Below, one piece after another: positions 5,363 to 15,569 of a DNA stretch of 60,369 nt. The stretch covers positions 1 to 60,369 of the forward strand of contig JAUVLU010000012.1 in the NCBI GenBank assembly GCA_030600585.1, read 5' to 3'. Position 1 is the stretch's first letter. Every line of letters begins with the position of its first letter. Under the pieces are notes generated by a model. It saw nothing but the letters and a program-made list of their open reading frames with translations. It was not told the DNA's origin and made no database searches. This DNA comes from Candidatus Cloacimonadota bacterium (GTDB lineage: Bacteria; Cloacimonadota; Cloacimonadia; Cloacimonadales; TCS61). A program made the position numbers and the translations under genes.

Positions 5363-5416
5363 ATACAAAATTAAGAGAATGAATTAGTCAAGAACTTTAT
5401 TGAGAATGAATCTCAA
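5363..5416 (-). promoter_or_regulatory. Candidate fur-feoAB promoter with Fur-like operator
   Basis: The palindrome TTGAGAATGAATCTCAA (5400-5416) has 6-bp arms. A second half copy, GAGAATGAAT (5375-5384), lies 27 bases closer to the gene in the same plus-strand orientation. A possible minus-strand -35 TTGACT (5386-5391) and a weak -10 TTGTAT (5363-5368) are 17 bases apart, and the half copy falls in the spacer. This fits metal-dependent autorepression. The promoter boxes are tentative; the operator is the stronger part of the call. Confidence 0.5.
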
Positions 5417-5433
5417 AATCACCTAATTGGACA

Positions 5434-5457
5434 TCAAATTTCAAATCCGGCGGTTTT
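5434..5457. repeat. 24-bp direct repeat, left copy
   Basis: Twenty-four bases are identical to 14766-14789, in the same orientation. The right copy is the 3' end of the TIR-like gene. The left copy can be read on the minus strand as the same residues K-T-A-G-F-E-I-stop, at the end of a short orphan open stretch. It marks the left boundary of a 9.3-kb accessory segment. Confidence 0.7.
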
Positions 5458-6138: not shown

Positions 6139-9100
6139 ATGAAAATTATATTAATTTTTTTATTGTTGGTCTTTCTTTCTCAATTATCAGCAATAATAAT
6201 AAACATACCAGCTGACTACCCAACCATTCAAATTGGAATCAATGTAGCAGCTGATGGTGATACTGTTCTTGTACAACCTGGAACTTATGTGGAAAATATT
6301 ATTTATAATGGACATAATGTTAATGTTGCATCACTATTTTTAATAACACAAGATACAACTTATATTTCACAGACAATTATTGATGGGAATAATGAAGATT
6401 GTGTAGTTAGATTTGAAGATGGAGAAGATTCGACAGCAGTTTTATGCGGTTTTACAATCCAAAATGGTTTGGGGCAAGAAATGAATGAAGAAATTGGTGG
6501 TGGAATTAATTGTGAGAATTCCAGCCCTAAGATTATGTATAACAAGATCATTAATAATGTTGGTGATCCTGGTGGAGGAATTGGATGTGAACAATCTGAT
6601 GCAATTATTGAGGGAAATTATATCCATAATAATCATGCTGAGAGTTCTTGGATGACTAACCGCGGAGGAGGAATTTCCTGTATTGCATCAGATCCTATTA
6701 TTAGAAATAATACAATCTCCAACAATTCATTAAACTGGGGAAATGGAGGGGGAATCTATTGTTCAAACTCCAATCCGCTCATAGAAAACTGTACAATTTC
6801 AGGAAATGAAAACAATAGTTATCTTGCTGGTGCAGGTATTTACTGTATTGGATCAACACCAACAATAATTAATGTTTCTATATCTAATAATTCCGGTGAA
6901 TTAGGTGGTGGTATTTATATCCATAACTCAGGTCCAATTTTAGAAAATGTAACTATCTCTAATAATTTTGCATATCAAGGAGGTGGAATCTATATAGAAG
7001 AAAGCTCAAATCCGATATTTAATCTTAATAATCGATGTAATATTTATGGAAACAATTCATTTAATAACATAGGCGTTGATTTATATATCAATAGTAATTT
7101 AATTACAAATGTAGCTGTAGATACGTTTTCTGTATTATATCCAAATAATTATTATTCTTTCTCTGAAGGAACTATAAATTACGACATTTTAAATTGCAAT
7201 ACAATTCAAATAGAAGATAATGTTTTCGTATCTTCACAAGGAAACAACAATAACAGTGGATTATCGTGGGATGACTCTTTTAATACACTAACTTATGCTA
7301 TTAGTCGAATTCGTGCTGACAGCTTACATCACCACACTATTTTTCTTGCAGACGACACTTTCAGTTTTTCTGCAAATGATGAGCAGTTTCCAATATACGG
7401 ATTAAGTTACCTTGATATCGCAGGAACAAGCTGTGAAACTACAATTTTAGATGCAGAAACTGAAAATGAAATCCTGAGATTTATTGATGTAACAAACTCA
7501 AATATAAGCAATTGTAAACTTACTAATGGATTTGTTGGTTGTACATATTTAGTGAATTCGGAAGTAAACTTTGATAATATGAAAATAACAAACAATGAAA
7601 CTTATTTAAATGGCGGAGCAATCTATGCGGCAAACTCTAATTCAACTATAAATAATTGCGTAATAGAATCAAATATGACTAATCATCGTGGAAGTGTATA
7701 TTTTACGGACGGTAATCTTGAGATTTCTAATACAAGTATTTTTAATAATTTTTCTGAAAAAGGAGCTGGATTATATTGTAGTAACGCAAATTTAGAATTA
7801 TATAATGTTCCTTTCTACAATAATGTAGCATCAGAGATGGGAGGTGGAATATATTTGAATAACTGTAATTCATTGTTCAGTAATGTTTCAATTCATAATA
7901 ATTCATCAAATCAGTTTGGAGGAGGAATATATTGTATCGAATCTACAATTTCCTTTGATGAAGATAATAGATGTAGTTTATATGATAATGAAATTGATCT
8001 TAGAAGCTATGGCAAAGAAATTTATGCTGAACAATGTGAAACTATGAATGTATTTCTAGATACGTTTACGGTGTCAAATCCATCAGATTATTATGCATCT
8101 CCACTAAGTATATTTAACTTTGATATTCTTAATAACACACAAGGAGAACTGATAAATTCGGACTTTTATGTTTCTATAACAGGGGATGATACAAACAATG
8201 GTACTTCTGCAGATGATCCATTACAAACGTTATCATGCGCTTTATCCAAAATTTACGCTGATAGTTTGAATCAGAATACTATACATTTATCTTCGGGTGT
8301 ATTCAGCTATGAAACCACGGGTGAGATTTTTCCAGTTGAATGGTGCAGTTTTGTTAACTTGGAAGGTTATGATGACGGCTCAACGGTTTTACAAAGCAAT
8401 GACCAGGACGGAGTATTAGTATTTCATAATGTTAGTGATGCAATAATCAGCAATGTTTCAATTTCTAATGAATATCCGGAATATGCTGCAGGAATAACTA
8501 TGCAATACTCCAGTCCGGTTCTTAAAAATATATCAGTTTCCGGCATTGCCGGACATGGTATCGGATGTAGTGATTTCTCAAATCCTATCCTGTATAACGT
8601 TTTACTCTATGACAACATTTACGGTTTCGGTTGTTCGTATTCATCAGAACCCTTTGTGATCAATTCTTTGATTTTTGATAACAACAGCAGAGGAATAACT
8701 AGTCACTATGATTCCAATCCGACAATTGTAAATACTACTATAGTCAATAACGTCTTTCCTATCTATATTCGCGATTCAAATGCAAATTTTCATAATTGTA
8801 TTTTATTCAATGATCATATTTATGAGATCGATGCTTTTCAAAACAGTTCAGTAACAATTTCTTATTGTGATATTGAAGGCGGAATTGATGCAGTTCACGT
8901 TTGGGTAAGTAGTATTCTTTTTTGGCTAGATGGCAATATTGATGAATATCCGCTATTTGCAGGAACTGGTGTTCATCCATTTATTCTTTTAGAATCATCA
9001 CCTTGTATAGATACTGGAACTCCCGAAACAACAGGTTTAAATCTTCCTCCTTGGGATTTAATCAACAACGAAAGAATCTGGGATGGAGATGAAAATGGTA

Positions 9101-9468
9101 TTGCTGTTATTGATATGGGAGCTTACGAATATGGAGCTCCTCCATACATAGTTGGAATAGAAGAGCCAATAATTCCCAATTCACAAGCTCTGATTAACTA
9201 TCTTGGTAGCTACCCCAATCCATTTAACCCATTCACCACAATTAAATTCTCAATCCAAAATGATTCTAAAGTTGATATTTCGGTTTTTAACATAAAAGGA
9301 CAAAAAATTAAAACTCTAATTCAAAATGAATTAATTAAAGGTGATCATTCAATAATCTGGAATGGTGATGATGAAACTGGAAAATTGGTTAGTTCTGGCG
9401 TTTATCTGTACAAATTAAATGTTAATGGTAAAACTGAAGCAGTGAAAAAATGTTTACTTCTGAAATGA
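6139..9468 (+). CDS. Secreted right-handed beta-helix protein with C-terminal sorting domain
   Basis: 1109 aa. A signal peptide (about 1-18) is followed by three parallel beta-helix modules. Each starts with a DUF1565/NosD-like opener: P-A-D-Y-P-T-I-Q...A-D-G-D-T-V near residue 25, then V-F-V-S-S-Q-G-N-N-N-N-S-G near 370, then F-Y-V-S-I-T-G-D-D-T-N-N-G near 675. The many N-x-x-I-x-x-N-x-A-x-x-G-G-G-I-Y rungs are typical of pectate-lyase-like or polymorphic outer-membrane repeats. The final ~85 residues, from Y-P-N-P-F-N-P near 1025, form the FlgD-like/type IX-type sorting domain ending in K-K-C-L-L-L-K. It is probably cell-surface attached or secreted; no lyase active site is evident. AGGAGAATAG precedes the ATG and lies in the end of repeat A. 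Confidence 0.88.
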   Translation: MKIILIFLLLVFLSQLSAIIINIPADYPTIQIGINVAADGDTVLVQPGTYVENIIYNGHNVNVASLFLITQDTTYISQTIIDGNNEDCVVRFEDGEDSTAVLCGFTIQNGLGQEMNEEIGGGINCENSSPKIMYNKIINNVGDPGGGIGCEQSDAIIEGNYIHNNHAESSWMTNRGGGISCIASDPIIRNNTISNNSLNWGNGGGIYCSNSNPLIENCTISGNENNSYLAGAGIYCIGSTPTIINVSISNNSGELGGGIYIHNSGPILENVTISNNFAYQGGGIYIEESSNPIFNLNNRCNIYGNNSFNNIGVDLYINSNLITNVAVDTFSVLYPNNYYSFSEGTINYDILNCNTIQIEDNVFVSSQGNNNNSGLSWDDSFNTLTYAISRIRADSLHHHTIFLADDTFSFSANDEQFPIYGLSYLDIAGTSCETTILDAETENEILRFIDVTNSNISNCKLTNGFVGCTYLVNSEVNFDNMKITNNETYLNGGAIYAANSNSTINNCVIESNMTNHRGSVYFTDGNLEISNTSIFNNFSEKGAGLYCSNANLELYNVPFYNNVASEMGGGIYLNNCNSLFSNVSIHNNSSNQFGGGIYCIESTISFDEDNRCSLYDNEIDLRSYGKEIYAEQCETMNVFLDTFTVSNPSDYYASPLSIFNFDILNNTQGELINSDFYVSITGDDTNNGTSADDPLQTLSCALSKIYADSLNQNTIHLSSGVFSYETTGEIFPVEWCSFVNLEGYDDGSTVLQSNDQDGVLVFHNVSDAIISNVSISNEYPEYAAGITMQYSSPVLKNISVSGIAGHGIGCSDFSNPILYNVLLYDNIYGFGCSYSSEPFVINSLIFDNNSRGITSHYDSNPTIVNTTIVNNVFPIYIRDSNANFHNCILFNDHIYEIDAFQNSSVTISYCDIEGGIDAVHVWVSSILFWLDGNIDEYPLFAGTGVHPFILLESSPCIDTGTPETTGLNLPPWDLINNERIWDGDENGIAVIDMGAYEYGAPPYIVGIEEPIIPNSQALINYLGSYPNPFNPFTTIKFSIQNDSKVDISVFNIKGQKIKTLIQNELIKGDHSIIWNGDDETGKLVSSGVYLYKLNVNGKTEAVKKCLLLK

Positions 9469-9480
9469 AGAGAATGCTGC

Positions 9481-9549
9481 TAACACACAACTCCACAGCC
9501 AAGCAAGAAGAAAAGCAAGAAGAGCGTGGCAGCTGCCAACCATTATACC
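9481..9549. repeat. Bulged hairpin before the DUF4384/caspase module (site alpha)
   Basis: CTCCAC (9491-9496) pairs with GTGG-c-AG (9526-9532) around one unpaired C; the loop carries the octamer GCAAGAAG twice. The right flank TTATACC (9543-9549) is the complement of GGTATAA found at the left of site beta (14615). Alpha and beta align over about 65 bases and flank exactly the two-gene module. This is reminiscent of a recombination site with an extrahelical base, but R-box matches are partial and no integrase is present. Confidence 0.5.
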
Positions 9550-9567
9550 TTATTAAGGAGTAGGAAA

Positions 9568-11058
9568 ATGAGATTTAAACTTTTTATTTTTTTTATATTC
9601 ATGATAGTTTTTCTATATTCAACACCAAAATGGTATGAAGAAAGTTATCCGGATAGTTCTTTCATTATTGGAAAAGGATGTGCTGAGATTGGAATTAATG
9701 CAATTGGGAATGCGAAAAATACAGCTATTAAAGATATTTCGCAAATAATATCATGTAGTATATCAGGTAAAATAATAAACCGTTCAATTGAGATAAACAC
9801 TGAAAAAACTGTTAAATCGACAGATTATTTTCTCAGCGAAACCAAAATCTCTACTAACCTTAAGATAATGAATTATAGAATTCTTAATTCACAAGAAGAA
9901 AATGGTTTATATTATATAATGATTGGTATCCAAATATCTGAATTAAAAGAACTATATAAATTCAATATAATTAAAGCAATTGATACGATTTCTTCTAATT
10001 TTGCTGCTGCTGAATTATCTAAAATATCAAATTCGAATTATGCAGTAAAGTTATATGAAAAATGTGCTCATACTCTAAGTACACTTTCAGATGAAATAAA
10101 AATTTATGTTTCATTTAATAATTGGTATAATGATATTGATTGTAATTCATTACCGGATATAAATTATATTGATAGACAACTTCTATTACTAACAGAAAGA
10201 ATTATTAAATCTCCATCTGTAATTGCCACTGAATTATTATCCTCGATCAACATAAATTCAAATCCAGATAAAACATTCTATGTTTTTCCATTTGAATATG
10301 AAAATACCAATTTTGTTTCTGAACTTAGTATTATAATGTCTGAACTAATCTCAAATGAAATTATTCAATCTACCGGTTGGAGAAAATCAAAAAAATCCGA
10401 TAATGTTTTTAGAGGTAAGATACTGGAATCAACAAACGGAATTTATATTTTTTTATCCTATTCTGATCCAAATTATAATGATAGTAATCAAATCTATATA
10501 AATGAAAAAAGTTGCAATAAAATAGGTTGGGATAAAATCAAACCTGTAAATTATAAAAATGCCCTACAGAATAAATTAACATTGTTAAATGCAATCCAGA
10601 CTGATAGCAAATTAAAAGTTGAATTGCAGACCGAAAAAATGTATAATGGACCTGTTATTTATTATATTGGTGATGAGCCCAAGCTTTATGTAAAAGCAAA
10701 TAAAGCTTGTTTTTTACGGCTAATATATATTTTCTCAGATAATATAAAAACTCTGCTGATTGATAATTATCCAATTTCAAACGAAATGGTTAATCAATGG
10801 ATACAACTTCCTTTTGAGTTTGAAGTAAGTGAACCTTGTGGTATTGAAGAAATTCTATTACAAGCTTCAACGGAAAAAATGCCATCTATTCAATATACAA
10901 AAATGCAATTAGATGGAGGTTACATTAATATTTTAAGTGACAATATTGAAAAAGAGATTGTAAAGACAAGGGGATTGAAGATTAAAAATCCTAAAAAAGA
11001 AATAACTGAGAGAAGTTATCAGTGGACTATATTTTTAAAGGAGTTAAATAATGAATAG
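9568..11058 (+). CDS. Exported LPP20-like plus DUF4384 protein
   Basis: About 496 aa from ATG 9568, chosen because TTAAGGAGTAGGAAA precedes it; an upstream in-frame start would add 14 residues and lacks a ribosome binding site. An N-terminal signal or anchor segment (about 1-20) is followed by P-K-W-Y-E-E-S-Y-P and I-G-K-G-x-A-E-I-G...A-x-x-x-A-x-x-D-I-S-Q-I-I, the LPP20 lipoprotein-type fold. The C-terminal part (about 355-455) has Y-x-I-G-D-E-P-K-L-Y-V-K-A-N-K-A-C-F-L-R-L-I-Y and L-x-I-D-N-Y-P-I, matching DUF4384. DUF4384 proteins are known partners of caspase-type proteases. The gene overlaps the next one by 8 bases, so the two are translated together. Biochemical role unknown. Confidence 0.75.
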   Translation: MRFKLFIFFIFMIVFLYSTPKWYEESYPDSSFIIGKGCAEIGINAIGNAKNTAIKDISQIISCSISGKIINRSIEINTEKTVKSTDYFLSETKISTNLKIMNYRILNSQEENGLYYIMIGIQISELKELYKFNIIKAIDTISSNFAAAELSKISNSNYAVKLYEKCAHTLSTLSDEIKIYVSFNNWYNDIDCNSLPDINYIDRQLLLLTERIIKSPSVIATELLSSININSNPDKTFYVFPFEYENTNFVSELSIIMSELISNEIIQSTGWRKSKKSDNVFRGKILESTNGIYIFLSYSDPNYNDSNQIYINEKSCNKIGWDKIKPVNYKNALQNKLTLLNAIQTDSKLKVELQTEKMYNGPVIYYIGDEPKLYVKANKACFLRLIYIFSDNIKTLLIDNYPISNEMVNQWIQLPFEFEVSEPCGIEEILLQASTEKMPSIQYTKMQLDGGYINILSDNIEKEIVKTRGLKIKNPKKEITERSYQWTIFLKELNNE

Positions 11059-14000
11059 TAAATTAATTTTTTCTCTTATATTTGCATTGTTTATTTGCAG
11101 AATAGCAGCTAATGATGTTAAATTAAGGATTGATTCTGGTGGTCATAGTGATATAATTAGAGATATAGTAGTTACAAAAGATAGTAAGTATGTAATTTCT
11201 GCTTCAGATGACAAAACTATCCGTGTTTGGGATATTGAAAGGAAAAAAGAAGAAAGAAAAATACTAAGTAATATTGGCAAAGGTGATAAAGGGAAAATAT
11301 ATACTATAGCTTTATCAAATGATGATAGGTTATTAGCTTCTGGTGGATATGATGGATTAATAAATTTATTTGATTTCAATAGTGGGAAAATGTTATACAG
11401 CATGTCATCAAATGAATACAAGTCAAAAGACTATATTCCATGGTATATTCCTAAAAGACAAAGAGAATTAAGGTTAAATCCAGCAAACTATTCTACTCTA
11501 GATTTGTCATTTAGTGCTGATGACAAATATTTGGTTAGTGCTCATTCAGATAATTACATCAGAATTTGGAATACTGATTCACACTCATTATCCAGTAAAG
11601 TACATCTTAAAAATTGCATTGTATATATTACTCAAACTTTTCAAAAAGATAATAAACAATATATAGTTTCAGGTGGCTCGGATGAAAAATTATATTTAAT
11701 TGATTTAAAAAAGGGGGAAAAAATAAAACGATTTGACGCAGAATTCTCGATTCACTCTACTGCTGTAAGTGATTCTTATATTGCAGCAAGTAGCAAGGAT
11801 TCAAAAAAAATATTAATTTTTGATTTGGAATTAAACTATATAAAAACAATAATATCAAAAACAATTCCTTCTGGATTAGCCTTTTCGCCCGATAATAATT
11901 ACCTTTTAACCGGAACAAAAAAGCAACCTAGAAAATGCAGCGTTTACGATTGTAATAATAATTTTGATTTGATTAATTCTTATAATGTGGATAATTCCGT
12001 ATTTGCAGTATCTTTCCTTGATAATGATACTGCAATTATTGGGGGTGGAACAAATTTTAAAATTATCGGATACAATATTTTTTCAAATGAAAATGAATTT
12101 GAGTTTTGCGGGAAAGGACAAAATCTATTTTCTGCAGGTTTGAAAGATAATAAAATATATTTTGGACACAAATTTACAAAAAAACAAGGTAAAAGTAAGT
12201 TAACTAAATATTTTGATTTAAAAGATTTTAAAATTGTAGATTTGGAAGAAAATATTGACCCGCTCTTGTTAAATTATCCAAAAACCGAACAAGGGATATA
12301 TCATATTGAAAGAGAATCCGATTTTCTTTCAGATAAATTAATTGTATTTGAGAGAGATAGTAAGATTGGTGAAATTATTTTTGATAAAAGCAATGGGATA
12401 AAACACAAAGTTTATGGTTTCACTCAGAATAACAAAATAATTACTTGTAGCTCGAATGGAATTATTAATGGTTATGACATTTATGGTAGAAAAATTGGTG
12501 ATTTTATTGGAGTTACAGGAACAATATGGTCAATGGCAATTGATGGAGATTATATGGTTACTGCTAGTTCCGATAATATTATTCGTTTATGGAATATTAC
12601 TGAAATCGATAAAGTTAAAACAGAAGGCAATTTTGATCGATATGAAAATAGAAAAATTTATCCAACTTTAAGCTTTTTCATTTCAAAAGATGATGAATGG
12701 GTAGCTTGGAATCAAAGAGGATATTATGATGCAAGCCTAAAAGGAGATAGATTCATTGGTTATTATATAAATAAAGGAATTAATTCAGAAGCTCAATTTC
12801 TAACAATTAACAAATTCCAAAAATCTCATTATAATCCGTATATTATTAGAGAATTAACCATTGGATTGAGTAATTCAAGTTTAAGTTTTGAAAATGATTT
12901 AAGCAATATTGCGGAGATAATTAATAAATTACCACCCGAAATAGAGTTAGTAAGTCCAATAAAGAGAAAATATAAGACAAAAAAGGATAGTGTAACTGTT
13001 CAATTTTATGTACATTATAATGATGAGAAAAATGATACAGAAATAAACATTCTTCTAAATGAACGTCCGATTAATTGCAATTTTACAATCCTAAAAAAGA
13101 GAAAGAACTATAATCTTGTAGAAGTAAATATACCGTTATTTGAGAAAAATAACATAATAAGTATCAGTGCAAATAATTTGTATGCTATTAGTAATTCAAT
13201 AAATCTTTCAATTGATAAAAAGAAAATAAATGAATTGCCGCCTACACTGGTTTTTAAACAACCTGAGACATCAATCACTAATATTGAAGGTAATAAAATT
13301 CATTTAGATTTTTATGTAGTACCTCAACCGGAATTAACTATTACAGAAATTGATATTTTTATTAATAATCAAAAATATCCAAAAAAAATAAATTGGGAAG
13401 AAATTGGGAATAAAATTTTTGTTAAACAAAATATTAAGCTAAAAGAATCTACAAATGAAATTAAGATAATTGCTCACGGAAGTAACTCCAAAATTTCTGA
13501 AAGAAGTTTTAAAATTATCAGAAACATTACAGAAGATATTACCGAAAGTCCATTACCTCCGATTATTAAAATGAATTACCCAACATCTGATCAGGTTACA
13601 ACTTCGGAGAAAGAAATTACACTTGATTTTGATATAGTACCTCAAACAAAAAAAGGGATTCCAAAAATTTCAATTATTCATAATTCATCTAAATTAAAAG
13701 AAAGAGGGATTATGATAAAAAAAACTTATGATGATTATATTCATTATGAACACAAAATATCCCTATTTGAAGGTAATAATCTAATAAAACTAATTGCATT
13801 TGAAAATGATAATATAAAATCCGAATTTACCATAATTATAACAAAAATTAATAAAATGGACGAACTTTATAAGCCCGATTTATATATTTTATCTGTCGGT
13901 GTAACTGATTATTTAGATGATGATTTAGATTTAAATTATGCTGCTGAAGACGCAAAAAGCATATCTGAAACTTTTAATTCTCAAAAATATGGTCTTTATA

Positions 14001-14608
14001 ATAATGTTAATTCTAAAGTACTTATAGATGATTTTGCAACTAAAGATAACGTTCTTGACGGTTTAGATTTCCTAATGAATGAAGCCACTCAAAGAGATGT
14101 TGTAATCATATTTTTAGCAGGACATGGTGTTAATGATATCAGTGGAAATTTTTATTTTTTATGCCATGATACAGATATTTCGAAATTAAGAAGAACAGGA
14201 TTGAAATGGTCTGAATTCGAAGATGTTGTAATCAATTTACCCTCAAAAGCTATTCTTTTAGTAGATGCTTGCCATTCCGGAAATATTATGGGTTCAAAAA
14301 GAGATATTGATATTAACGGAGCTATAAAAAGTTTAATGGTTGCTGGTACTGGACAAGTGATTATGACAGCAACAACTGGGAATTCATATTCTTACGAAGA
14401 AGATAAATGGAAACATGGCGCTTTTACGAAATCTTTAATTGATGGTTTTAATGGGCAAGCTGATTATGATGATGATAAGATTATCTCAATAAAAGAAATT
14501 GATCTTTTTGTAACTAAAAACGTAAAAAAATTAACTAAAGGCAAACAAAAGCCAACTACAATTATTCCTGAATCAATGCCGGATTTTCCTATTTATTTAA
14601 AGAAATGA
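11051..14608 (+). CDS. Exported WD40-repeat caspase-family (C14) protease
   Basis: 1185 aa with a signal peptide (about 1-20, ...IFALFICRIAAN). WD40 repeats follow: for example residues about 29-62 ending I-R-V-W-D-I, 78-109 ending L-F-D-F, 148-176 ending I-R-I-W-N-T, and a later one near 490-516 ending I-R-L-W-N-I. Three Ig-like segments (about 630-930), each opened by a P-x-I/L motif, come next. The C-terminal caspase domain starts near 940 (L-Y-I-L-S-V-G-V-T-D-Y). His1025 in L-A-G-H-G-V and Cys1074 in V-D-A-C-H-S-G give an intact catalytic dyad. The signal peptide implies action outside the cytoplasm, unlike most bacterial defence caspases. The start overlaps the LPP20/DUF4384 stop and has GGAG 8 bases upstream. 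Confidence 0.88.
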   Translation: MNSKLIFSLIFALFICRIAANDVKLRIDSGGHSDIIRDIVVTKDSKYVISASDDKTIRVWDIERKKEERKILSNIGKGDKGKIYTIALSNDDRLLASGGYDGLINLFDFNSGKMLYSMSSNEYKSKDYIPWYIPKRQRELRLNPANYSTLDLSFSADDKYLVSAHSDNYIRIWNTDSHSLSSKVHLKNCIVYITQTFQKDNKQYIVSGGSDEKLYLIDLKKGEKIKRFDAEFSIHSTAVSDSYIAASSKDSKKILIFDLELNYIKTIISKTIPSGLAFSPDNNYLLTGTKKQPRKCSVYDCNNNFDLINSYNVDNSVFAVSFLDNDTAIIGGGTNFKIIGYNIFSNENEFEFCGKGQNLFSAGLKDNKIYFGHKFTKKQGKSKLTKYFDLKDFKIVDLEENIDPLLLNYPKTEQGIYHIERESDFLSDKLIVFERDSKIGEIIFDKSNGIKHKVYGFTQNNKIITCSSNGIINGYDIYGRKIGDFIGVTGTIWSMAIDGDYMVTASSDNIIRLWNITEIDKVKTEGNFDRYENRKIYPTLSFFISKDDEWVAWNQRGYYDASLKGDRFIGYYINKGINSEAQFLTINKFQKSHYNPYIIRELTIGLSNSSLSFENDLSNIAEIINKLPPEIELVSPIKRKYKTKKDSVTVQFYVHYNDEKNDTEINILLNERPINCNFTILKKRKNYNLVEVNIPLFEKNNIISISANNLYAISNSINLSIDKKKINELPPTLVFKQPETSITNIEGNKIHLDFYVVPQPELTITEIDIFINNQKYPKKINWEEIGNKIFVKQNIKLKESTNEIKIIAHGSNSKISERSFKIIRNITEDITESPLPPIIKMNYPTSDQVTTSEKEITLDFDIVPQTKKGIPKISIIHNSSKLKERGIMIKKTYDDYIHYEHKISLFEGNNLIKLIAFENDNIKSEFTIIITKINKMDELYKPDLYILSVGVTDYLDDDLDLNYAAEDAKSISETFNSQKYGLYNNVNSKVLIDDFATKDNVLDGLDFLMNEATQRDVVIIFLAGHGVNDISGNFYFLCHDTDISKLRRTGLKWSEFEDVVINLPSKAILLVDACHSGNIMGSKRDIDINGAIKSLMVAGTGQVIMTATTGNSYSYEEDKWKHGAFTKSLIDGFNGQADYDDDKIISIKEIDLFVTKNVKKLTKGKQKPTTIIPESMPDFPIYLKK

Positions 14609-14614
14609 AAACAA

Positions 14615-14680
14615 GGTATAACATAAGCCTCCACACTCAGATTGAAAGAAAAGCAAGAAGAACGTGGCAGGCTCCCAACA
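14615..14680. repeat. Bulged hairpin after the caspase gene (site beta)
   Basis: AGCCTCCAC (14626-14634) pairs with GTGG-c-AGGCT (14664-14673), a 9-bp stem interrupted by a single unpaired C. The left flank is GGTATAAC (14615-14622). It aligns with the hairpin at 9481-9549, including GAAAAGCAAGAAGA and CGTGGCAG. The two sites bracket the LPP20/DUF4384 and caspase genes. Confidence 0.5.
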
Positions 14681-14765: not shown

Positions 14766-14789
14766 TCAAATTTCAAATCCGGCGGTTTT
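14766..14789. repeat. 24-bp direct repeat, right copy (3' end of TIR-like gene)
   Basis: Identical to 5434-5457 in the same orientation and includes the stop codon and last seven codons of the TIR-like gene. The arrangement (gene 3' end plus a displaced copy of that 3' end 9.3 kb away) is the geometry left by integration at a gene end. Confidence 0.7.
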
Positions 14790-15569
14790 TAACTCCTCAA
14801 AAACCTGCTCCCGCCATTTTCCGGATTTATCAATTTTTATATACTCAAAACCGTGATAATCTTCCGGTATTTGCAGATCATTGGTATATAAACCGCAAAC
14901 TTTTTCTCTACCAAACAATCCCACAAATATTCCTAATTCTAAAATAACATTCTGGTCTGCACGGAATTTTAAATTATCGGGTTGAATACCACCGACATTA
15001 TCCGGCGTGAGTAAAACTATTGCGAATTTCACTTCCGATCTGGTTAATATCTCTTCTATCAGTGTTTTTCCGCCTGCTATGAATTCCTGAAGCACGATAG
15101 GTTCAAGACCTAATTCAGTAATGAAATTTATAACCATAGTTTTAGTAGAGCAATTTGTTCCATGAACAAAAAACAACCTCTTGCTGTTATCTCTTTTGCC
15201 TGTTCTATCTTGAATTTTGAATATTCCCAGACTTAACTTTATGGAATTCAGTTTATCTAATTTATCTTGAATATCAATATTAAGTTTGGCTGTTTTCTCA
15301 GAAAGTTTAAGATCGGAAACAAATATCCTGCCGATAGACCAACCGGATGATGAGTAATCTTTGGCTACTTTATTGTTCTTAAAGATAAGTTTTAACAGCT
15401 CATAATTCTCACTATTCCAAACCTTGAATTTTTTTTCCGCAGTCTTCCACTGTTGTATATTCTTGATCTTAAGTTTAAGCAGAGCTTCACCTTTTAGTAT
15501 CTTATCTTCGATGAGATCATCTGCTTTTTCAGGTGGAATATTCAATATAAAAAGTTTTTTATCTACCAT
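14766..15569 (-). CDS. TIR-like predicted nucleotide-binding protein (COG4271/PF10137 type)
   Basis: 267 aa. The C-terminal half (about 130-267) has the TIR-like signature: R-L-F-F-V-H-G-T-N (131-139), a variable helix, F-A-I-V-L-L-T-P-D-N-V-G-G (182-194), and R-A-D-Q-N-V-I-L-E-L-G (203-213). Glu211 is at the position of the catalytic glutamate of NADase TIR domains. I-P-E-D-Y-H-G-F-E-Y-I and a closing amphipathic helix follow. The family supplies NAD-cleaving effectors in CBASS, Pycsar and short-Argonaute-like defence. The first ~125 residues are a separate lysine-rich domain that I do not recognise; it could be the sensor. No cyclase, STING or Argonaute gene is adjacent. Confidence 0.8.
   Translation of the reverse strand: MVDKKLFILNIPPEKADDLIEDKILKGEALLKLKIKNIQQWKTAEKKFKVWNSENYELLKLIFKNNKVAKDYSSSGWSIGRIFVSDLKLSEKTAKLNIDIQDKLDKLNSIKLSLGIFKIQDRTGKRDNSKRLFFVHGTNCSTKTMVINFITELGLEPIVLQEFIAGGKTLIEEILTRSEVKFAIVLLTPDNVGGIQPDNLKFRADQNVILELGIFVGLFGREKVCGLYTNDLQIPEDYHGFEYIKIDKSGKWREQVFEELKTAGFEI

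What the first reader, a model, noticed from the sequence alone, without database searches (positions are those of the whole stretch)
9568..14608. Exported LPP20/DUF4384 plus WD40-caspase two-gene module
Both proteins start with signal peptides, overlap by 8 bases and carry an intact caspase dyad (His1025, Cys1074). Known bacterial caspase-based immunity proteins are cytosolic. This one carries a WD40 receptor-like half and Ig-like domains on the outer side of the membrane and is paired with an LPP20/DUF4384 partner. It sits in an accessory segment beside a TIR-like protein. It may be an undescribed envelope-facing protease surveillance or execution system.
Basis: partly seen in the sequence, partly recalled or inferred. 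Interest (0 to 1): 0.72.

Follow-up and report, generated by a model that had tools for sequence, protein, structure and literature searches.

The report
Exported caspase–DUF4384 pair on cassette
A little-known bacterium (Candidatus Cloacimonadota) carries a two-gene unit that makes a caspase-like protease and a dedicated partner, both sent out of the cytoplasm; similar pairs recur across its phylum with different protease architectures, and this one sits on a movable gene cassette, which points to a regulated protease system in the cell envelope that I found described nowhere.

Summary
ORF1 (9568-11058) and ORF2 (11051-14608) overlap by 8 bases; both have signal peptides. ORF1 folds as LPP20 + LpoB/TolB-like + DUF4384. 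ORF2 is WD40 + Ig-like + caspase with His1025/Cys1074. The genome is a Candidatus Cloacimonadota, genus Tenebribacter.

Homologues extend the finding. Across 125 genomes of the phylum, 11 of 19 ORF1-family hits have a caspase-fold gene within 6 kb, all on the same strand (0.23 expected); most of the rest lie at contig ends. The neighbour varies: WD40-caspase, caspase-FGE or TPR-CHAT. A second partner family (~290 aa, FlgT_N-like + DUF4384) sits on the same strand as a caspase gene within 4 genes at 24 of 27 loci, usually 6-12 bases away. Export is conserved.

The TIR neighbour is a syntenic gene of the genus, present without the module. The module is accessory: 5.4-14.8 kb replaces deoB and a second gene, is bounded by 24-bp direct repeats, and ORF1+ORF2 form one integron-like cassette.

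Best reading: a mobile, two-component extracytoplasmic protease with a dedicated envelope-facing regulator. Regulation, substrate and immune role are untested.

The parts
9568..11058 (+). ORF1: exported LPP20 + LpoB/TolB-N-like + DUF4384 protein (496 aa), the conserved partner
   Evidence: AlphaFold pLDDT 82; Foldseek Lpp20 5ok8, LpoB-C 4q6z, HP1454 4kzs; DUF4384 28.6 bits with frame neighbours
11051..14608 (+). ORF2: exported WD40 propeller + Ig-like + caspase (Peptidase_C14) protein, 1185 aa
   Evidence: closest homologue 43% identical overall (L044)
14123..14125 (+). catalytic His1025 codon
   Evidence: LAGHGVN; nearly invariant in alignment A4
14270..14272 (+). catalytic Cys1074 codon
   Evidence: LVDACHSG; nearly invariant in alignment A4
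9476..9546 (+). attC-like site after the beta-helix gene; its right end (TTATACCTT from 9543) starts the ORF1+ORF2 cassette
14611..14680 (+). attC-like site directly after ORF2; its left end (AAGGTATAA 14613-14621) is complementary to the cassette start; its right core is degenerate
9543..14680 (+). integron-like gene cassette carrying ORF1+ORF2
   Evidence: 9-nt complementarity of the two cassette ends, as in 5 of 6 other consecutive site pairs
6139..9468 (+). neighbouring unit in the same accessory segment: beta-helix protein with a Por_Secre_tail/FlgD_ig-like C-terminus, followed by the first attC-like site
5434..5457 (+). 24-bp perfect direct repeat, left boundary of the accessory segment (copy of the TIR gene 3' end)
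   Evidence: coincides with the end of synteny
14766..14789 (+). 24-bp perfect direct repeat, right boundary (native 3' end of the TIR gene)

Best explanation
ORF1 and ORF2 are the two halves of a regulated extracytoplasmic protease. ORF2 is exported by the Sec route and acts in the periplasm or beyond it; its WD40 and Ig-like parts bind a ligand or substrate and its caspase domain cuts proteins with the His1025/Cys1074 pair. ORF1, made of envelope-type domains (LPP20, LpoB/TolB-like, DUF4384), is the dedicated regulator or docking partner that holds the protease in check or activates it according to the state of the envelope. The partner is the constant element and the caspase-fold protease the interchangeable one. 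The unit spreads as a gene cassette. Shown: pairing, conserved export signals, intact catalytic pair, interchangeable protease, accessory cassette-like location. Inferred: exact compartment, protease activity, the direction of regulation, the substrate, and an envelope-remodelling or quality-control role.
For: Linkage of the ORF1 family to caspase-fold genes: 11 of 19 within 6 kb against 0.23 expected, all same strand. Own genome: its only caspase found by the Pfam genome search and its only CHAT protein each sit beside an ORF1 paralogue, and another caspase is paired with a short DUF4384 protein. Interchangeable partners: WD40-caspase, caspase-FGE, TPR-CHAT. Second partner family at 24 of 27 loci. 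Signal-peptide-like N-termini: 58/62 caspase-fold, 16/17 ORF1, 25/25 short partners, against 266/690 other genes. Fold of ORF1. DUF4384 also forms the outer part of two putative anti-sigma proteins encoded beside ECF sigma factors, fitting an envelope-sensing role.
Against: No biochemical evidence. ORF2's closest homologue (L044) stands alone without ORF1, as do many caspase-FGE proteins of another family, so the partner is not always needed or is encoded elsewhere. Two divergent ORF1 homologues and L064 have no caspase-fold gene nearby. The signal-peptide test was crude. Linkage was shown only within Cloacimonadota.
Confidence: 0.55

Rival explanations
1. Envelope-facing immune or cell-death executioner: the WD40/Ig (or FGE, TPR) part recognises phage, predator or rival contact at the envelope, and the freed caspase destroys envelope proteins, killing the cell or the attacker.
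For: Caspase-fold effectors are widespread in known bacterial immunity; exchangeable recognition domains on a constant partner; cassette mobility and patchy distribution; some copies lie near a type I methyltransferase, an Uma2-type gene or a TIR gene.
Against: The TIR gene here belongs to the conserved flank; PADLOC gives only a partial 37-bit caspase match; some copies lie beside housekeeping genes such as a division cluster (my reading of L045/L046); short-partner pairs are partly syntenic between genera.
Confidence: 0.2
2. Maturation or shaving protease for exported proteins with type IX-like C-terminal tails, in the manner of the clan CD proteases PorU and gingipain: the module cuts or attaches such cargo, for example the beta-helix protein encoded next to it.
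For: The adjacent unit encodes a beta-helix protein with a Por_Secre_tail/FlgD_ig-like end; in G025 the caspase pair is likewise next to such a gene (L054); clan CD sortases of that pathway are established knowledge.
Against: Cargo genes of this kind are very abundant in these genomes, so adjacency is weak; ORF2 itself lacks such a tail; the caspase is family C14, not C25.
Confidence: 0.13
3. Secreted offensive protease aimed at competitors, with ORF1 as immunity or chaperone protein.
For: Two-gene, cassette-borne, exported unit; constant partner with variable effector domains.
Against: No delivery domain found; the partner is the conserved part and the protease the variable one, the reverse of what a specific immunity protein would show; one partner gene lies between two different proteases (L048).
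Confidence: 0.05
4. Chance adjacency of unrelated exported genes.
For: About 39% of all other genes sampled in these loci pass the signal-peptide test.
Against: P about 1e-17 for ORF1 linkage, all same strand; 21 of 27 short partners immediately adjacent. Related genomes are not independent, but several families and two partner families agree.
Confidence: 0.02

Closest known systems
Bacterial metacaspases/orthocaspases (Peptidase_C14) with WD40, TPR or FGE domains (survey PMC3501461)
   Same: Same protease family, same accessory domains; 46 surveyed sequences have an N-terminal helix that may be a signal peptide
   Different: No conserved exported LPP20/DUF4384 partner gene is described there
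Caspases with DUF4384 in the same protein (Cyanobacteria PMC7475262; Alphaproteobacteria PMC6426788)
   Same: Caspase and DUF4384 associated
   Different: Here DUF4384 is on a separate exported protein with LPP20/FlgT_N-like and, in ORF1, LpoB-like domains
EACC1-associated caspases (NCBIfam NF047832) and other cytosolic caspase/CHAT immunity
   Same: Caspase-fold effector with recognition part
   Different: Score 87.6 below the cut-off of 140; exported; no nucleotide or STAND sensor seen
FlgT / Lpp20 / LpoB / HP1454 envelope proteins
   Same: Predicted fold of ORF1's domains
   Different: ORF1 has a DUF4384 domain, no lipobox, and a caspase partner
Integron gene cassettes
   Same: Imperfect palindrome with a bulged base after the ORF, complementary cassette ends, arrays of same-strand units
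   Different: Core is mostly CATTA rather than GTTA; no integron integrase over cut-off in this genome; unusually large cassette (about 5.1 kb, two genes)

Membership tests
Bacterial metacaspase (Peptidase_C14, PF00656) | caspase domain above the curated cut-off | tested here: met
   63.5 bits vs 21.4
Bacterial metacaspase (Peptidase_C14, PF00656) | intact His-Cys pair | tested here: met
   His1025, Cys1074
Bacterial metacaspase (Peptidase_C14, PF00656) | protease activity | not testable with these tools
   needs purified protein
LPP20/FlgT-like family (ORF1) | LPP20-type fold | tested here: met
   Foldseek 5ok8 probability 1.00, TM (target) 0.53-0.55
LPP20 lipoprotein | lipobox cysteine | tested here: not met
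   no lipobox in ORF1; 1 of 17 family members passes the crude test
DUF4384 (PF14326) | score over curated cut-off | tested here: inconclusive
   25 of 27 bits on the protein; 28.6 with frame neighbours; ORF1-family homologues mostly 22-25
Known caspase-based anti-phage systems | match to a curated defence model over most of the protein | tested here: not met
   PADLOC caspase model only 1-130 of 453, 37 bits; EACC1 caspase 87.6 < 140
Known caspase-based anti-phage systems | cytosolic location | tested here: not met
   signal-peptide-like N-termini conserved; heuristic only
Known caspase-based anti-phage systems | linked to defence genes | tested here: inconclusive
   TIR is a syntenic gene of the genus; a few defence-type genes near other copies
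Integron gene cassette | attC-like palindrome with bulged base and covarying arms | tested here: met
   three pairs 36-37 of 48 vs 21-22 shuffled
Integron gene cassette | complementary cassette ends (R'/R'') | tested here: met
   9 nt in the window; 9-10 nt in 5 of 6 other arrays; control 4.6%
Integron gene cassette | GTTRRRY core | tested here: not met
   GTTA at the expected place in only 2 of 48 copies; CATTA in most
Integron gene cassette | integron integrase in the genome | tested here: not met
   own best match 75 bits, cut-off 265; present in G015 and, broken, in G002; genome 97% complete

The most novel reading that the evidence does not exclude
A modular extracytoplasmic counterpart of caspase-based immunity: a constant LPP20/DUF4384 adaptor in the envelope licenses interchangeable caspase-fold proteases (WD40-caspase, caspase-FGE, TPR-CHAT) that sense attack or damage from outside the cytoplasm, with whole modules exchanged as integron-like cassettes across Cloacimonadota.
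Probability: 0.22. Interest if true: 0.85.

Novelty: new variant of a known kind. Interest (0 to 1): 0.62.

Why it matters
Function is unknown for most bacterial caspase homologues, and attention has gone to cytosolic immunity proteins. [quoted passage not shown] Carriage on integron-like cassettes in an uncultured phylum suggests the modules are traded as adaptive units.

Tried and rejected
First genome-contig scan with ORF2 alone found nothing; the second, with the ORF1 alignment, gave named Cloacimonadota. Plasmids: no ORF1 or short-partner match, only distant caspases. Considered and rejected: TIR as part of the system; ORF1 as a lipoprotein (no lipobox); a simple terminator or REP reading of the repeat (strand bias 34/34 and matching cassette ends favour cassettes); that ORF1 and the short partner share both conserved cysteines (the profile alignment does not place the LPP20-domain cysteines together). 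Full-length ORF2 model too weak (pLDDT 62) to describe domain contacts. Rfam and tRNA scans of the window: nothing.

Full report
What is there. ORF1 (9568-11058, +) and ORF2 (11051-14608, +) are exactly as described, with an 8-base overlap. ORF2 has a WD40 half, Ig-like stretches and a caspase domain (Peptidase_C14 3e-17) with His1025 and Cys1074. ORF1 has a sub-threshold DUF4384. Its AlphaFold model (pLDDT 82) matches H. pylori Lpp20, the LpoB C-terminal domain and HP1454, with weaker Ig-like (complement) matches, so I read it as LPP20 + LpoB/TolB-N-like + DUF4384.

Organism.

Linkage. In all 125 held genomes of the phylum, 19 strong ORF1-family hits occur. Against all Peptidase_C14 and CHAT hits, 11 of 19 have one within 6 kb, always on the same strand; 0.23 expected, P about 1e-17 if independent (related genomes are not fully independent). 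Of the other eight, most are at contig ends; L064 and two divergent members are true exceptions, and L070 is followed by a WD40 protein cut by the contig end. In the window's own genome the only caspase found by the Pfam genome search and the only CHAT protein both sit beside ORF1 paralogues.

Interchangeable protease. The ORF1 family neighbours WD40-Ig-caspases (window, G001 with three in a row, G120), caspase-FGE proteins (G028, G027, G114, G105), TPR-CHAT (own contig C33), or both caspase-FGE and TPR-CHAT at once (G030). A second partner family, ~290 aa with FlgT_N-like and DUF4384 domains, directly follows other exported caspases: 24 of 27 loci within four genes and same strand, 21 immediately adjacent, typically 6-12 bases apart. 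The two partner families are related over the N-terminal domain (profile comparison probability 86%, E 5e-6). A third group (~459 aa, DUF4384-like end) accompanies caspase-FGE genes in another family of the order. The own genome therefore has at least three such modules.

Export. By a simple hydrophobicity rule, signal-peptide-like starts occur in 58/62 caspase-fold proteins, 16/17 ORF1 members (the exception is a fragment behind a stop codon) and 25/25 short partners, against 266/690 other genes. Both window proteins lack further membrane segments and a lipobox, so periplasm or beyond is likely; the exact compartment is inferred.

Site. In the congeners the order is fur - (359-aa gene) - deoB - TIR - small gene - CCA-adding enzyme, as far as their contigs reach, with TIR present in six of nine. 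In the window, 5.4-14.8 kb carries the beta-helix gene, ORF1 and ORF2 in place of deoB and its neighbour, and no deoB is found elsewhere in the genome. Homology to congeners stops at 5416-5430 and resumes at about 14766, exactly at a perfect 24-bp direct repeat (5434-5457 / 14766-14789). The TIR gene is thus a conserved flank, not a partner. In G105 and G104 (another genus) a different caspase + DUF4384 pair lies at the same site beside the CCA-adding enzyme gene.

Cassette. ORF1+ORF2 lie between two copies of a ~62-nt element (9476-9546, 14611-14680). The element is family-wide (23 of 40 genomes, reversed control zero). Of 41 copies read, all 34 with an upstream ORF follow it on the same strand, 26 within 60 nt. 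It has an attC-like stem with a bulged C and three covarying pairs. Consecutive copies have complementary cassette ends of 9-10 nt in 5 of 6 arrays, against 4.6% of control pairs. The window cassette starts TTATACCTT and ends AAGGTATAA. The G025 caspase pair (L054) is likewise bounded, with one mismatch, by TTACGTGAAA and TTTCACATAA. The core is CATTA rather than GTTA in most copies, and no integron integrase over cut-off is in this genome, so I call it integron-like.

Mechanism. A constant envelope-type partner beside variable caspase-fold proteases suggests regulator plus effector. DUF4384 also occurs on the outer side of two putative anti-sigma proteins encoded beside ECF sigma factors, and published caspases carry DUF4384 in the same chain (PMC7475262, PMC6426788). 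I therefore favour a regulated extracytoplasmic protease responding to envelope state; an immune executioner is the main rival. Activity, regulation and substrate are untested.

Known and new. WD40-, TPR- and FGE-containing metacaspases, some with N-terminal signal-like helices, and metacaspase operons were surveyed in 2012 (PMC3501461). In the open-access library searched, titles and abstracts returned show no paper that joins LPP20 proteins with bacterial caspases, and none holds both Cloacimonadota and caspase. The conserved exported pair, the exchange of the protease and the cassette carriage appear new, within the limits of that library.

Noticed in passing
window 9476-9546 and 14611-14680; L225-L230, L054: Family-wide integron-like cassette system in Cloacimonadota with attC-like sites whose core is CATTA; the cargo next to sites often ends in type IX-like tails (...VKKCLLLK).
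   Followed up: partly
G001:C93, G030:C341, G002:C3, G005:C5, G103:C337, G015:C75 and C89: Tandem pairs of tyrosine recombinases related to integron integrases but below the cut-off, recurring in the family, in G001:C93 upstream of two attC-like sites.
   Followed up: no
window 5434-5457 and 14766-14789: 24-bp perfect direct repeat at both synteny breakpoints; the left copy duplicates the 3' end of the TIR gene; the deoB (phosphopentomutase) gene of the congeners is missing from this genome.
   Followed up: partly
window 14766-15569; L165-L168, L172, L173, L179: CAP12/PCTIR-type TIR protein (PADLOC PDC-S35) conserved in synteny near the CCA-adding enzyme gene across the genus; also matches phage family phrog_16442.
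   Followed up: partly
L156 2712-4193; L157 3291-4802: ECF sigma factor genes each followed by a putative membrane anti-sigma protein whose outer part is DUF4384.
   Followed up: partly
L049 2077-2673; L073 9219-9758: IS200-like (Y1_Tnp) REP-type transposases lie between the caspase-FGE gene and the ORF1 homologue; a similar-looking ORF is at L118 8168-8707.
   Followed up: partly
L063 9635-12681 (G013:C39): Exported WD40-caspase gene split by an in-frame TAG between the signal-peptide part and the caspase part, its DUF4384 partner intact.
   Followed up: no
L045 7598-16761 (G001:C169): Three WD40/Ig-caspase genes in a row beside an ORF1 homologue, each with a very similar C-terminal half and a different N-terminal half, plus an 87-aa leftover of a fourth: looks like exchange of the recognition half.
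   Followed up: partly
L065: Public record titled Armatimonadota (CSMAG_2426) appears to be the same contig as in genome G030, which the genome collection places in the window's Cloacimonadota family: likely mislabelled.
   Followed up: no
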